The notes beneath the pieces are model-generated. The model worked only from the letters and a program-made list of their open reading frames with translations, did no database searches and was not told the origin of the DNA. This document shows, piece by piece, positions 9,399 to 64,000 of a DNA stretch of 64,000 nt (position 1 is its first letter; the number at the start of each line of letters is the position of its first letter). Made by a program: the position numbers and the translations under genes. The stretch comes from Thermococcus sibiricus MM 739 (GTDB lineage Archaea > Methanobacteriota_B > Thermococci > Thermococcales > Thermococcaceae), in contig NC_012883.1 in NCBI RefSeq assembly GCF_000022545.1, forward strand, positions 124,001 through 188,000. Direction: 5' to 3'.

Positions 9399-10244
9399 TC
9401 AAAGCTTGAGTTCCACCCAGTTTTCTTTTCTTCCTTTGATTATTTTCACTAGTCCTTGCTTTTCAAGGCGTTTGAACATTCTCCAAGCTGTAGTTTTTGG
9501 GATCTCCAGAGCAGTTCTTACTTCTGCTTGGCTAGCTCTTCCACCTTTCTCTAAGATATAAAGTAATGCTCTCCTTTCATCTTCATTTAGATTAAAGAAT
9601 TCGAGCTTTTTCAAGAATTCTTCTTTATCTATGTGGATTTCTGTTCTTTTAGGTTCTTTTCTCCTATTTCTGGCAAGGACAATAGAAATCAAGAGTATAA
9701 CCACCAGAATTCCTAATGGTAAAAGATATTTGCTATAACTTTGTCCTTCCTCTGTAGGAGTTTCTTTGAATTCCAAAGTGTATGAGATACTTTGATTCCC
9801 AGGGGGCATTGTTATTACATTGGAAGCTATTTTGAGGGGTACTTCTGATAGGTCTACAATAACAGCATTTTCCGGGAGGATCACATTAAAGGAAGAATCC
9901 ATAGACATGTTAAGCGTCCACACTAAACCCTCTTTATATGTTAAGTCAGGGGTGTAATAAGAGACATCAATAATTTGGGCCTCACCAACATATATCACCA
10001 TATATCTGTCGTAAATCTCAAAATTTAATGGGTTGTTATTCTCATCAACGACTGCCAGTCCTTCGTAATTTTCTCCTAAAAATGGTAGAATTATCTGGGA
10101 GGAGTATTCATCGGGAATTATTTGATAATGCACTTTTACATAACCATCAGTGTACACAGTTAATTCCATCTCAGAGACTGTAAATTGGGCACTGATAAGG
10201 GGTAAAATTGCAAGGATGCTGATTAGAGATAGGATTTTCTTCAT
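9399..10244 (-). CDS. Membrane-anchored winged-helix regulator with secreted sensor domain
   Basis: A 281-residue one-component-like regulator. Residues 1-19 form a signal peptide, 20-170 an extracytoplasmic beta-rich domain, 173-191 one transmembrane helix followed by RNRRK, and 218-281 a cytoplasmic winged helix (helix-turn-helix around SQAEVRTALEIPKTTAWRMF) of MarR/TrmB-like type. The outside domain is closely related to the protein at 62507-63091, which has no winged helix. It is the second gene of an operon, 12 bases after the secreted helical protein, suggesting that the secreted partner or its ligand is sensed. Topology is read directly; the signalling role is inference. Confidence 0.75.
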   Translation of the reverse strand: MKKILSLISILAILPLISAQFTVSEMELTVYTDGYVKVHYQIIPDEYSSQIILPFLGENYEGLAVVDENNNPLNFEIYDRYMVIYVGEAQIIDVSYYTPDLTYKEGLVWTLNMSMDSSFNVILPENAVIVDLSEVPLKIASNVITMPPGNQSISYTLEFKETPTEEGQSYSKYLLPLGILVVILLISIVLARNRRKEPKRTEIHIDKEEFLKKLEFFNLNEDERRALLYILEKGGRASQAEVRTALEIPKTTAWRMFKRLEKQGLVKIIKGRKENWVELKL

Positions 10245-10256
10245 CTCCCGACCTCC

Positions 10257-11411
10257 TTAGGAATTTGCATTTATGAATTCCTCTACCTCTGTGAGAAGCC
10301 TGTTTGCTCTTTGCAAGTGCAGAATTGCACTGTTTACATCGTTTTTCTTAATGAGGCTAATTGCTATAGAAAACTCATTAATTGCACCTCTTAGTTGAAT
10401 TTCTGCTCTTGTAGTCTGTATTCCTTTCTTCCGTAAGGTGGCAAGAGCGGTAGCATCTTTTCTAATCCTTTCTCTTGTCATCATTAGAAACACTTCTGTA
10501 TTCATTTTTTCGCTTTTTACCTTTTCAATTGTCATGAAAAAATTTTTCATATAATCTGCATTTTCCCCGATCACTCTAAGGGCATCTATCCATTTTCCTT
10601 CATTCGCTAAGTAGGTCACTTGTAGATATATTCCTTTTATTTTTTCCATGGCTTTTTCAGCTTCTCCAGTCTCTCGTCCTCTTGATTTTGCGTATTCAAT
10701 TGCTTTTTCAGCTGTTGTAATACTTTGATTGGTCTTTATAAGGAAGGATTTTACAATCATCTCTGCGTTTTTTGAAGTCAGCTTGGTTGTAAGATCTCTA
10801 GTCTCTATATCGAGTTCCATTTTCTTTTGTTTCGCTTTTTCTAGGCTTATTTTGGCCTCTTCAAGGTTTCCATTCTCTATATATTCAAGAACTTCAACAT
10901 AAGCAGTTTTAGCTTCAACATAAGCCTTGGTCAGGTTCTCTACGTCTATCCCTTTACTTTTTGCTACTTCTATAAGCTTTTCCACATATGTAAAGTATGC
11001 GAAGACCCTGGTGCTCTCTTCCTGAATTTGTGTTCTTAAAACTCCGGGAGTTTTTTCATCTTCTTCGAGGGCCTTGAGAATCCCTTTGTAATACCTCATT
11101 GCACCCAGAGAATACTGAATTGCTTGGAGATAGTTTCCATTTTGATATTCGGTAAGAGCCTTTTCTTTAAGTTCTTTGGCTTTATCGTAGTCCTTTAGGA
11201 GATTCTCAGGTAATCTACTCTCCACTGGTTTCACTCGTATATTCACTAAAGTGCTAAGTTTTGTCAGTTGATTTATAATCTCTCCAGCGATCTCTTCGTT
11301 ATTTTGTTCACCCAAATATTCACTAGTTGATTGATTTTGGGCAAAAGTAGCCCCTATGGGAATTAAACCTCCAATTAAGATAAGCATCAACCAAAGGCCA
11401 CTAAATTTCAT
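10257..11411 (-). CDS. Secreted all-helical protein, partner of the membrane regulator
   Basis: A 384-residue protein with a signal peptide (about 1-25, ending ATFAQ) and an otherwise almost entirely helical, Lys/Glu-rich chain likely to form helical-hairpin or TPR-like repeats; the units around YLQAIQYSLGAMRYYKG and NGNLEEAKISLEKAKQKK look TPR-like. There is no second membrane span, so it should be secreted or held at the surface. It is clearly paralogous to the partial protein at 63122-64000: shared landmarks are IE(V/I)A-x3-GIDV, EYA or EMA followed by (S/E)-(R/K)-G, and a C-terminal R-AE-QL segment. GGTGAGAG precedes the ATG. Function unknown. Confidence 0.7.
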   Translation of the reverse strand: MKFSGLWLMLILIGGLIPIGATFAQNQSTSEYLGEQNNEEIAGEIINQLTKLSTLVNIRVKPVESRLPENLLKDYDKAKELKEKALTEYQNGNYLQAIQYSLGAMRYYKGILKALEEDEKTPGVLRTQIQEESTRVFAYFTYVEKLIEVAKSKGIDVENLTKAYVEAKTAYVEVLEYIENGNLEEAKISLEKAKQKKMELDIETRDLTTKLTSKNAEMIVKSFLIKTNQSITTAEKAIEYAKSRGRETGEAEKAMEKIKGIYLQVTYLANEGKWIDALRVIGENADYMKNFFMTIEKVKSEKMNTEVFLMMTRERIRKDATALATLRKKGIQTTRAEIQLRGAINEFSIAISLIKKNDVNSAILHLQRANRLLTEVEEFINANS

Positions 11412-11460
11412 AATCTCTCACCCAAATGTATGTTGAATTGTACATCACTTTAGGGACTCG

Positions 11461-11486
11461 ATGAAACGAAAGTTTCATATCGTTTC
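11461..11486 (-). promoter_or_regulatory. Candidate operator of the helical-protein/regulator operon
   Basis: Nested inverted repeats: ATGAAAC-GAAA-GTTTCAT at 11461-11478, and GAAACG at 11463-11468 mirrored by CGTTTC at 11481-11486. On the coding (minus) strand they lie just downstream of an AT-rich TATA-like stretch at about 11490-11499 and 50 bases before the ATG at 11411, a repressor-type position. Binding by the winged-helix protein encoded in the same operon is a natural guess. Confidence 0.45.
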
Positions 11487-11591: not shown

Positions 11592-12356
11592 TCAAGGGAT
11601 TGGATATCCAAGTCCTTTAAGAATCATCCTGATTGCTAGGAATGCCATTATCACTGCAAATGCTTTCGTTAGATTGCTGGCTTTGGTCCTTTTGGCTATC
11701 TTCGCCCCTAACTGAGCACCAACTATTAATCCTGGCACAAGTAGGATCAGCCACTCAACCTCAACGTTCCCGAGCATGTAGTGTTTCAAGGCTCCGCTTA
11801 TGGCTGTAAATACAATGGCAAAGCTTGAAGTTGCTACTGCATAGTGGATTGGCAACCCCATATAAGTCAAAAATGGTACGTTTATTGCTCCACCACCTAT
11901 TCCAAGCAATCCACTGGCTATTCCTGCTATAAACCCTCCTATTGGGACAATTTTGTAGTCTAGCTTTACCTGGTTTAAGTCAACTTCGTGGGGTTCTCTG
12001 CTCTTTTTACGATAGATTCTTATCGCAACCAGAAAGAGAACTACACCAAAGATCACTTTAAGCTGGCTTGCACTGATGTAACTCGTCATCCATGCTCCGA
12101 TATAGGCTCCTATAACGGCAGTACTTGCCAAAAGTAGGCCTGCCTTGTAGTGTATTCTCCTTTGCCTGTGATAGGCTATAGCAGAGCTTAAGGATGTAAA
12201 AACGACGGCAGCACTTGAGGTTCCAACTGCATGGTGAATTTCAACTCCTAAGAGATTTAGAGTGGGGACTACTAAAAATCCTCCTCCAAGTCCGAATAAT
12301 GCGGCCAATATACCTACGAAAATTCCAATGCTAAAGTACCCAAGGTATTTAAGCAC
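11592..12356 (-). CDS. TauE/SafE family membrane permease
   Basis: A 254-residue polytopic protein made of two homologous halves, each starting with a glycine-rich motif: GLGGGFLVVP near residue 23 and GIGGGAINVPF near 155, followed by AVGTSSAAVVFTS and AVATSSFAIVFTA. This internal duplication is diagnostic of the TauE/SafE (sulfite, sulfoacetate or other anion exporter) family. A cytosolic loop RIYRKKSREP separates the halves. It ends 4 bases short of the M42 peptidase stop region, with no shared function evident. Substrate unknown. Confidence 0.88.
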   Translation of the reverse strand: MLKYLGYFSIGIFVGILAALFGLGGGFLVVPTLNLLGVEIHHAVGTSSAAVVFTSLSSAIAYHRQRRIHYKAGLLLASTAVIGAYIGAWMTSYISASQLKVIFGVVLFLVAIRIYRKKSREPHEVDLNQVKLDYKIVPIGGFIAGIASGLLGIGGGAINVPFLTYMGLPIHYAVATSSFAIVFTAISGALKHYMLGNVEVEWLILLVPGLIVGAQLGAKIAKRTKASNLTKAFAVIMAFLAIRMILKGLGYPIP

Positions 12357-62506: not shown

Positions 62507-63091
62507 TCATCTTTTCCATAATGCGATCCCTAAAACTAGGAGTGCCAAAAGACCTCCTAGAGGGAGAATAATTTTTGTTAAATCTTTATCTGTGTTTGTG
62601 GCAATATCTTGAACAGTTTTTTGGTCTTCGAGGTCTTGAAGGATAAAGCTTATTTGCACTTCACCTGCGGGCATTGTTATCTTGTTTCCGTGTATTTCAA
62701 GGGGTGAGTCACTCATATCCACCAAATCTGCTTCTTCAGGTAAGATTACGTCTACTGGAGCTTCTGATTTTAATGAAAGAGTCCAAATAAGGCCTTCTTT
62801 GTTCATTAGATCTGGAGTGGAGTATATTATTTTTACTATTTGAGAGTTTTGAACAGTTATTGTGATCTCGTTTCCGTTTATGGAATATTCTAGAGGGTTA
62901 CCATTTTCATCTATAACAAAGATGTCCTCGTAATGATCCCCGAGCAGGGATGATGTAACTTGAGTTGTATAGTCGTCCACAGGCATTTCAATTTCCACAG
63001 TTGCATAGCCATCTCCATAGGGTGTAATGGTTATGCTCTGGGCATTCACAAGAGGGATGAAAAGTAAAAGGGCAAGTAGAGTTCTCTTCAT
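62507..63091 (-). CDS. Membrane sensor-domain protein lacking the winged helix
   Basis: A 194-residue protein with a signal peptide (1-17), an extracytoplasmic beta-rich domain (18-170) and one C-terminal transmembrane helix (173-191) ending LWKR. Its outside domain is clearly homologous to that of the regulator at 9399-10244: shared stretches include DENGNPLE, STPDL or YTPDL, KEGLIWTL and EIHGNKITMPAGE versus NVITMPPGN. The cytoplasmic winged helix of that protein is absent. It stands 30 bases after the helical secreted protein, the same gene order as at 10 kb. Confidence 0.72.
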   Translation of the reverse strand: MKRTLLALLLFIPLVNAQSITITPYGDGYATVEIEMPVDDYTTQVTSSLLGDHYEDIFVIDENGNPLEYSINGNEITITVQNSQIVKIIYSTPDLMNKEGLIWTLSLKSEAPVDVILPEEADLVDMSDSPLEIHGNKITMPAGEVQISFILQDLEDQKTVQDIATNTDKDLTKIILPLGGLLALLVLGIALWKR

Positions 63092-63121
63092 TCATTTCAC
63101 CTCCGCAAAAATTTAGAGAAA

Positions 63122-64000
63122 TCAAGCATGCCGTAGGATAAACTCGTCGACCTTGTGGAGCATGTCTAAGGCTATTGCAAAATGCATCTTAGCTTCAGCG
63201 GGTTTTCTGTTTTTAAGGAGTTCGATTCCAAGTCTTATTTCTTGTATGGATGTTTTGAGCTGAAGTTCTGCTCTCCTGGTGTCTACTCCCCTTCTTCCAA
63301 GTTCTCTTAACTCCCTTGAATCTTTCTGGATTCTTATTGTCATCTCTCTGAGGAATCCTTTTAAGTCTCCCAATCTCTCTTGGACTTCTCTTTCATGGAA
63401 CTTCTTCTGAAGGAAGGCCATTGCCCGATGGAATTCTTTTATTGTCTCTGTATTCTCTCTCATAACTTGAAGAGCCTCATCGTATTTCCCTTCATCTGCA
63501 AGGGCCTTAACTTCACTATAAATCTCCTTAAATGCTTCGAGTCTTTCCTGGAGCTCATGAGCGTCGTAACCCTTTTCTTCTGCCATTTCAACGACTTTCT
63601 CTGCTGTTTCTATCCCTCTTGCACCTTTCTCTAGGAATTCATTTACTATTTTGTCTGCATTTGCTTCTACAAGCTCCTTTCTGATTCTTCTAAGTTCTTC
63701 ATCTAAGGCAGCTTTCTTTTCTCTGGCGATTTCAAGATCTTCCCTAGCTTTTTCAAGATCTTTAGCTTTTATGTCTTCCAGCACAGCCTTATATGCATCT
63801 TTAGTCTCTTGTAAGAGCGTCGTTGTATTTCCCACGTCAATTCCCTGTCTCTGGGCAATTTCTATTGTCTTTTCGGCCATTCTGAAGTAGCCTTCCATTC
63901 TCTTTATCTCTTCCGGAAGCCTTTCCTTAAGCTCTTCCTTCCCTCTCTCGAAGCTCTTTAGCACTTCTCTGTAGTGGTGCATTGCAGTGAGGCCGTTTAT
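63122..64000 (-). CDS. Secreted helical protein, second copy (N-terminus beyond the window)
   Basis: The visible 292 C-terminal residues of a protein homologous to 10257-11411. The frame is open to the window edge, and the first visible residues (INGLTAMHHYRE) align with AIQYSLGAMRYYKG of the other copy, so about 90 more N-terminal residues with a signal peptide are expected. The chain is entirely helical and charged (KEELKERLPEEIKRMEGYF), with likely coiled coil. It lies upstream of the wingless sensor protein as partner gene. Confidence 0.7.
   Translation of the reverse strand: MNGLTAMHHYREVLKSFERGKEELKERLPEEIKRMEGYFRMAEKTIEIAQRQGIDVGNTTTLLQETKDAYKAVLEDIKAKDLEKAREDLEIAREKKAALDEELRRIRKELVEANADKIVNEFLEKGARGIETAEKVVEMAEEKGYDAHELQERLEAFKEIYSEVKALADEGKYDEALQVMRENTETIKEFHRAMAFLQKKFHEREVQERLGDLKGFLREMTIRIQKDSRELRELGRRGVDTRRAELQLKTSIQEIRLGIELLKNRKPAEAKMHFAIALDMLHKVDEFILRHA

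What the first reader, a model, noticed from the sequence alone, without database searches (positions are those of the whole stretch)
9399..11411. Two-gene module: secreted helical protein plus membrane-anchored winged-helix sensor
Gene 1 encodes a secreted, all-helical, TPR-like or coiled-coil protein; gene 2 encodes an extracytoplasmic sensor domain, one membrane helix and a cytoplasmic winged helix. A second copy of the same order occurs at 62507-64000. A transcription factor held in the membrane by its sensor, co-encoded with a secreted partner, would let the cell translate an outside state into DNA binding without a kinase. I know of no described archaeal system with exactly this arrangement, though membrane-bound winged-helix proteins of unknown function exist in archaea. 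This is my best candidate for an undescribed system.
Basis: partly seen in the sequence, partly recalled or inferred. Interest (0 to 1): 0.8.

Follow-up and report, generated by a model that had tools for sequence, protein, structure and literature searches.

The report
Archaeal membrane-tethered regulator with secreted partner
Most hyperthermophilic archaea of this order, and some distant archaeal relatives, carry a two-gene unit in which a secreted helical protein is made together with a DNA-binding protein anchored in the membrane by an outward-facing domain, and a DNA motif in front of the unit and of some cell-surface genes suggests an undescribed way of passing information about the cell surface to the genes without a kinase.

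Summary
The pair is real. Window 10257-11411(-) encodes a 384-aa all-helical protein with a signal peptide. Twelve nt downstream, 9399-10244(-) encodes a 281-aa protein: signal peptide, beta-sandwich, one membrane helix, cytoplasmic winged helix (TrmB and DUF7343 above cut-off; model pLDDT 87). One correction: the second copy (62507-63091) ends after its membrane helix and has NO winged helix. The module is not strain-specific: the sensor family is in 90/94 and the helical family in 83/94 Thermococcales genomes, 127 of 150 listed sensor hits have a helical gene directly upstream, pair distances co-vary (Mantel r 0.89), and homologous pairs occur in two further families of the class and in Thermoproteota MAGs. 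New here: a conserved dyad, GRAACG-N2-CGTTYC, followed by CCTAA(A)ATA, lies about 35-75 nt upstream of the helical gene. It occurs in 56/90 helical upstreams against 7/664 others, all seven in loci picked for the motif. Genome-wide here a strict form occurs exactly twice, before both pairs. In relatives it also precedes an ABC exporter operon, a PMT-type glycosyltransferase and a lectin-like surface protein. Best reading: a ToxR-like membrane-tethered one-component activator with a co-encoded secreted regulator. DNA binding, partner contact and signal are inferred.

The parts
10257..11411 (-). helical gene: 384-aa secreted protein, signal peptide about 1-25, then all-helical (helices of about 10-60 residues)
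   Evidence: ORF; family in 83/94 Thermococcales genomes; all-helical in AF2 fusion model, most of the region pLDDT 77-98; no Pfam/NCBIfam family above cut-off
9399..10244 (-). sensor-regulator gene, 281 aa
   Evidence: ORF; family in 90/94 Thermococcales genomes; AF2 pLDDT 87.4
9765..10184 (-). exocytoplasmic beta domain of the sensor (residues about 21-160)
   Evidence: 14 strands, pLDDT mostly above 90; Foldseek top PDB hits are M1 aminopeptidases and yeast OST chain 7oci_A; no Pfam family
9663..9734 (-). single membrane helix (residues 171-194), followed by a basic stretch ARNRRKEPKR (positive-inside: C-terminus in cytoplasm)
   Evidence: helix 171-194 in model; sequence
9402..9626 (-). 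cytoplasmic winged helix (residues 207-281) with recognition helix IPKTTAWRMFKRLE
   Evidence: Pfam TrmB PF01978 E 3.9e-9 and DUF7343 above cut-off; P249, T251, T252, W254, R255, R259 invariant in 19 diverse members
10245..10259 (-). junction: helical stop TAA, Shine-Dalgarno-like GGAGG, 12-nt gap to sensor ATG
11447..11486 (-). promoter element GAAACGATATGAAACTTTCGTTTCATCGAGTCCCTAAAGT, 36-75 nt upstream of the helical ATG; dyad GRAACG-N2-CGTTYC then CCTAAA
   Evidence: 46.2 bits; next best site in the window 9.2; best in 20 random 64-kb controls 20.7; strict form only twice in the genome, before both pairs, control pattern 0
62507..63091 (-). pair B: winged-helix-less paralogue of the sensor, 194 aa, ends after the membrane helix
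   Evidence: 42% identity over residues 6-191; about 190-aa homologues in genera g1, g2, g3
63122..64000 (-). pair B helical gene (404 aa), 5' end cut by the window edge; same promoter element upstream at G000:C1:188361-188387

Best explanation
The pair is a kinase-less, membrane-tethered one-component signalling module of archaea. SHOWN by sequence or model: the sensor has an outward beta domain, one membrane helix and a cytoplasmic winged helix; the helical gene encodes an exported all-helical protein in the same apparent operon; the two genes co-vary as a pair; a conserved dyad GRAACG-N2-CGTTYC stands just upstream of a CCTAA(A)ATA promoter box of the module and, in relatives, of some cell-surface genes. 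INFERRED: the winged helix binds this dyad, probably as a dimer. Because the dyad lies upstream of the TATA-like box, binding most likely activates (by helping recruit TFB to a weak promoter) the module itself, the winged-helix-less pair B in trans, and in relatives envelope genes (ABC exporter with an exported Ig-like protein, PMT-type glycosyltransferase, lectin-like protein). The secreted helical protein contacts the beta domain and sets its activity, most likely as a titratable inhibitor or chaperone that reports the state of the cell surface and closes a feedback loop. Pair B would be a surface-anchored form of the same couple with no DNA-binding arm. The signal is unknown; envelope damage is my first guess, metals a second for one subfamily.
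For: Domains and topology. Fold of the beta domain. Distribution: 90/94 and 83/94 Thermococcales genomes; 97/115 genomes of the phylum, including three families outside Thermococcales, two of them with helical partners. Adjacency: 127/150 listed sensor hits with a helical hit directly upstream; several hits scored as lone have a diverged secreted helical gene that BLAST missed. Pairs outside Thermococcales: f2 (L112/L159), f4 (L160-L163), Thermoproteota MAGs (L123-L125, L128). Co-variation: Mantel r 0.889 over 66 pairs, 0 of 2000 permutations (max 0.269). Promoter element: 34-bit matrix; strict form exactly 2 in the genome, before both pairs; 79 matches against 1 reversed-pattern control in 94 genomes, 70 of 79 at 44-103 nt before a helical gene; dyad in 56/90 helical upstreams against 7/664 others; present outside Thermococcales. 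Extra targets are mostly envelope genes. Position matches TFB-RF1 (footprint -47 to -70 from the start codon, weak BRE, PMC5937170); TrmBL1 sites upstream of BRE/TATA activate (PMC4706686).
Against: No DNA-binding, expression or interaction data exist for any member in the papers I could search. The element's binder is assigned by co-occurrence only. G009 has a motif before a lectin-like gene although the sensors found there are of diverged type. Diverged Pyrococcus pairs (L067, L068, L071) lack a clear element. Co-variation partly reflects shared species history. AF2 fusion pTM 0.68 does not establish an interface and the tool returns no PAE. Extra targets are few, were found in relatives, and none was found in this genome at the strict threshold.
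Confidence: 0.55

Rival explanations
1. The pair is first of all a cell-surface structural complex (helical protein held to the membrane by the beta domain); the winged helix is a lineage add-on that monitors it, and signalling is secondary.
For: Pair B keeps the helical protein and the anchored beta domain but no winged helix in several genera, one with a CGP-CTERM-like surface-sorting tail at 19.5 bits against cut-off 21; orphan helical genes without any sensor exist.
Against: Most full-length family members keep the winged helix with an invariant recognition helix; sensors without a helical partner but with the winged helix also exist (L120, L121, L127, L164); the promoter element is shared by pairs and envelope genes.
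Confidence: 0.17
2. The promoter element is bound by another factor (a global regulator or a TFB variant) and merely marks co-regulated envelope genes; the winged helix regulates something else.
For: Binder assigned only by co-occurrence; pair B and orphan helical promoters carry the element without a winged-helix gene next to them; a motif occurs in G009, which has only diverged sensors.
Against: The element is retained in front of the module in several families of the class while the proteins diverge to 30-40% identity; the two genomes over 95% complete without any detectable sensor (G074, G077) have no element; it is not seen before sensors paired with DUF134 or before solo sensors.
Confidence: 0.18
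3. Metal or redox sensor: the helical protein binds metal or is oxidised outside and signals through the beta domain, as CnrX or ZraP do in bacteria.
For: A subfamily of helical partners has Met-rich or acidic/Cys/His-containing tails and lies beside a Zn/Cd-type P-ATPase and an ArsR-like gene (L077, L078); some extra targets lie beside MsrA/B (L131, L135).
Against: The window's own helical protein has no such tail and no metal gene beside it.
Confidence: 0.1

Closest known systems
ToxR-ToxS and CadC type membrane-tethered transcription factors (bacteria; from general knowledge)
   Same: Winged helix in the cytoplasm, single membrane helix, extracytoplasmic sensor domain; ToxR has a co-encoded partner acting outside; no kinase
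   Different: Winged helix is C-terminal here (N-terminal in ToxR/CadC) and TrmB/MarR-like, not OmpR-like (no PF00486 hit); the partner is a soluble secreted helical protein, not a membrane protein; beta domain unrelated by sequence
ArnR / ArnR1 of Sulfolobus (PMC6396743)
   Same: Archaeal membrane-bound one-component regulators
   Different: N-terminal HTH, putative HAMP and sensing domain, two C-terminal membrane helices; no secreted partner mentioned in the passages read
TrmB / DUF7343 winged-helix families (PF01978, PF24034)
   Same: The DNA-binding domain passes both gathering cut-offs
   Different: No sugar-binding TrmB domain; exported sensor domain and membrane helix instead. Two other membrane DUF7343 proteins in this genome carry unrelated outer domains
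TFB-RF1 of Pyrococcus (PMC5937170)
   Same: Palindromic site about 50-70 nt before the start codon upstream of a weak BRE, autoregulation plus an ABC transporter target
   Different: Different motif (TCTGAANTTCAGA); no membrane-tethered regulator or secreted partner described in the passages read
CpxP / ZraP / CnrX periplasmic helical regulators (bacteria; from general knowledge)
   Same: Small exported all-helical protein encoded with its signalling system
   Different: No detectable sequence relation; no histidine kinase or sigma factor here
M1 aminopeptidase N-terminal beta domain / Ost1 (ribophorin I)
   Same: Best Foldseek fold matches of the sensor beta domain
   Different: 8-15% identity, TM-score about 0.3 of the full query; no catalytic domain

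Membership tests
TrmB family (PF01978) | TrmB-type winged helix above the curated cut-off | tested here: met
   36.7 bits, cut-off 25.6
TrmB family (PF01978) | C-terminal effector (sugar-binding) domain of full TrmB proteins | tested here: not met
   only winged-helix families match above cut-off; the rest is signal peptide, beta domain and membrane helix
DUF7343 membrane regulators | DUF7343 winged helix above cut-off | tested here: met
   28.2 bits, cut-off 27.6, marginal; L074 and L120 members also above
ToxR/CadC-type regulators | N-terminal OmpR/PhoB-type winged helix (Trans_reg_C) followed by one membrane helix and an outer domain | tested here: not met
   winged helix is C-terminal and no PF00486 hit up to E = 1
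ToxR/CadC-type regulators | DNA binding while membrane-tethered | not testable with these tools
   needs EMSA or ChIP
ArnR family | N-terminal HTH, HAMP, two C-terminal membrane helices | tested here: not met
   one membrane helix, C-terminal winged helix against the description in PMC6396743
CpxP/ZraP-like helical regulators | recognisable sequence homology (Pfam family) | tested here: not met
   no such family up to E = 1 for either helical protein
   TPR_2 12.3 and 13.0 bits, cut-off 27; helical fold supported by the model
M1 aminopeptidase N-terminal domain fold | structural match of the beta domain | tested here: inconclusive
   82 PDB matches at E <= 0.001, but modest TM-scores on the multi-domain query

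The most novel reading that the evidence does not exclude
An archaeal cell-envelope stress system found in several archaeal lineages: a secreted helical protein and a membrane-tethered winged-helix activator that share an operon, read the surface state directly, and control a regulon of surface glycosylation, export and anchoring genes through the GRAACG-N2-CGTTYC operator, with winged-helix-less copies acting as tuning partners.
Probability: 0.35. Interest if true: 0.82.

Novelty: new variant of a known kind. Interest (0 to 1): 0.66.

Why it matters
Thermococcales, including genetically tractable model species, have few characterised ways of sensing the outside of the cell. A kinase-free system that is nearly universal in the order, with a predicted operator and candidate targets, makes archaeal envelope sensing directly testable, and would add an archaeal counterpart, built from different domains, to ToxR-like signalling.

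Tried and rejected
First fusion alignment A5 misaligned the helical C-terminal half onto the sensor and was discarded; fused in-frame rows fixed this (A7, A8). My first control for the dyad was contaminated by redundant helical ORFs and was redone. Literature searches for locus tags that I guessed from memory (TK1049-1051, PF1028-1032) gave no relevant paper, nor did DUF7343/DUF7345 or membrane-bound winged-helix terms. Considered and rejected: truncation artefact for pair B (about 190-aa homologues in several genera, no second coding remnant seen before the next gene); chance adjacency; a mobile or defence module (conserved neighbours such as metG, no mobility genes seen).

Full report
WHAT IS THERE. 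The window is part of a 1,845,800-bp single-contig genome; that size is the one I remember for Thermococcus sibiricus, and the relatives retrieved are Thermococcales. On the minus strand, a helical gene (10257-11411, 384 aa) is followed after 12 nt by a sensor gene (9399-10244, 281 aa). The junction reads stop TAA, GGAGG, ATG. The helical protein has a signal peptide and otherwise only helices in an AlphaFold2 model, with no family above cut-off. The sensor has a signal peptide, a 14-strand beta domain, a membrane helix at 171-194 followed by basic residues, and a winged helix at about 207-281. The winged helix passes the TrmB and, marginally, the DUF7343 gathering cut-offs. Recognition-helix residues (P249, T251, T252, W254, R255, R259) are invariant in a diverse set, which is what a working DNA-binding domain should show.

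CORRECTION TO THE OBSERVATION. The second copy keeps the gene order but its sensor-like protein is 194 aa and stops right after the membrane helix. It is not a second regulator. The same short form (about 190 aa) occurs in genera g1, g2 and g3. In one g2 genome it ends in KGVCGPALIGLLAILPLAMRKSL, which scores 19.5 bits against the CGP-CTERM sorting-signal cut-off of 21. I read it as a surface-anchored form of the same couple.

DISTRIBUTION AND LINKAGE. In 94 Thermococcales genomes the sensor family is found in 90 and the helical family in 83, in all six genera. Of 150 listed sensor hits, 127 have a helical hit directly upstream on the same strand, mostly 16-80 nt away for the pair A type. Several Pyrococcus sensors scored as lone do have a diverged secreted helical gene overlapping or abutting them. 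True exceptions are a Pyrococcus subfamily coupled instead to a DUF134 HTH gene, solo sensors in Nitrososphaeria MAGs and in one family f5 genome, and orphan helical genes. Outside Thermococcales, homologous pairs occur in families f2 and f4 of the same GTDB class and in Thermoproteota MAGs, where the helical proteins are still found by the Thermococcales profile (E 1e-13 to 1e-17; helical sequences can inflate such scores, but the synteny is independent). L112, titled Methanomicrobia, encodes the same proteins as L159 from a genome of the host's class. Pairwise distances of the two proteins co-vary strongly over 66 pairs (Mantel r 0.889, none of 2000 permutations above 0.27); part of this is shared species history, but paralogous pairs also sort together.

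PROMOTER ELEMENT (new). Upstream of the helical gene most loci carry a GRAACG-N2-CGTTYC dyad, often with an extra GRAACG half-site 10 bp further up, followed by CCTAA(A)ATA. A matrix of 34 bits finds one strong site in the window (11447-11486, 46.2 bits; next 9.2; random controls at most 20.7). A strict form with up to 3 mismatches occurs exactly twice in the genome, before pair A and before pair B, with 0 control matches. In 94 genomes a related pattern gives 79 matches against 1 reversed control; 70 lie 44-103 nt before a helical gene. The dyad with at most one mismatch is in 56 of 90 helical upstreams and in 7 of 664 other upstreams, and all seven come from loci I fetched because of the motif. 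The element persists in families f2 and f4 and in a half form in Thermoproteota. It was not seen before DUF134-type pairs, solo sensors, or diverged Pyrococcus pairs. The two genomes above 95% completeness with no detectable sensor (G074, G077) have no element.

OTHER TARGETS. The nine matches not before a helical gene lie near the start of: a lectin-like (Laminin_G_3) exported protein, in two genomes beside MsrA/B (L131, L135; related gene in L134); a PMT_2 glycosyltransferase (L133, L136); an ABC ATPase operon with a permease and, in L137, an exported NPCBM/Ig-like protein (L137, L139); and a small cytoplasmic protein (L132, L138). Most are envelope functions. This rests on few loci.

MECHANISM. 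The element sits where activator sites sit in Thermococcales. TFB-RF1 protects -47 to -70 from the start codon upstream of a weak BRE (PMC5937170), and TrmBL1 sites upstream of BRE/TATA activate while downstream sites repress (PMC4706686). I therefore predict an activator that regulates its own operon, pair B in trans, and in relatives envelope genes. The secreted helical protein is most simply a regulator of the beta domain, as CpxP-like proteins and ToxS are for their sensors (general knowledge). The fused AF2 model (helical plus beta domain, pTM 0.68 for 559 residues) is slightly above what I estimate two unrelated domains would give (about 0.55-0.66), which is a hint, not proof; the tool gives no PAE. 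The beta domain resembles the N-terminal domain region of M1 aminopeptidases and Ost1, at low identity and modest TM-score.

KNOWN OR NOT. It works like ToxR-type regulators but is not one (domain order and winged-helix type differ). ArnR/ArnR1 are the described archaeal membrane-bound regulators (PMC6396743) and differ in layout. I found no paper on this module, within an open-access library only. Verdict: a real, widely conserved and apparently undescribed module; new variant of a known kind; the operator, partner contact and signal remain to be tested.

Noticed in passing
window 62507-63091; L141:6560-7147; L142:5046-5612; L143:5601-6194: Conserved winged-helix-less paralogue of the sensor, still paired with a helical gene; the g2 form ends in a CGP-CTERM-like tail (19.5 bits, cut-off 21).
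   Followed up: yes
L066, L069, L070, L072, L073, L085: In Pyrococcus a sensor subfamily overlaps or abuts a DUF134 HTH gene instead of a helical gene and lacks the promoter element.
   Followed up: partly
L077:5575-6930, L078:4153-5838: Helical partners with Met-rich or acidic/Cys/His-containing tails beside a Zn/Cd-type P-ATPase and an ArsR-like gene: possible metal-sensing branch.
   Followed up: partly
L137, L139, L133, L136, L131, L135: The promoter element precedes an ABC exporter operon, a PMT-type glycosyltransferase and a lectin-like surface protein in relatives.
   Followed up: partly
L086:1489-2430, L087:1474-2499: Two other membrane-anchored DUF7343 winged-helix proteins in this genome with different outer domains (one CW_binding_2): a wider class of such regulators.
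   Followed up: partly
G083:C9:9573-10723, G084:C3:145651-146801: Helical gene appears broken (stops inside, split hits) in two close relatives; the sensor is intact in G084 and gives split hits in G083.
   Followed up: no
L120, L121, L127: Nitrososphaeria MAGs carry the sensor alone, directly downstream of an ornithine-cyclodeaminase-like gene (named by eye from sequence).
   Followed up: no
L160-L163: In family f4 the pair lies downstream of a gene that looks like deoxyhypusine synthase (named by eye), a conserved neighbourhood.
   Followed up: no
window 11592-12356: A TauE/SafE permease gene lies upstream of the pair; a similar gene is upstream of the pair in the T. kodakarensis-sized genome (L084:5687-6418) and metG lies downstream in several genera: conserved synteny.
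   Followed up: partly
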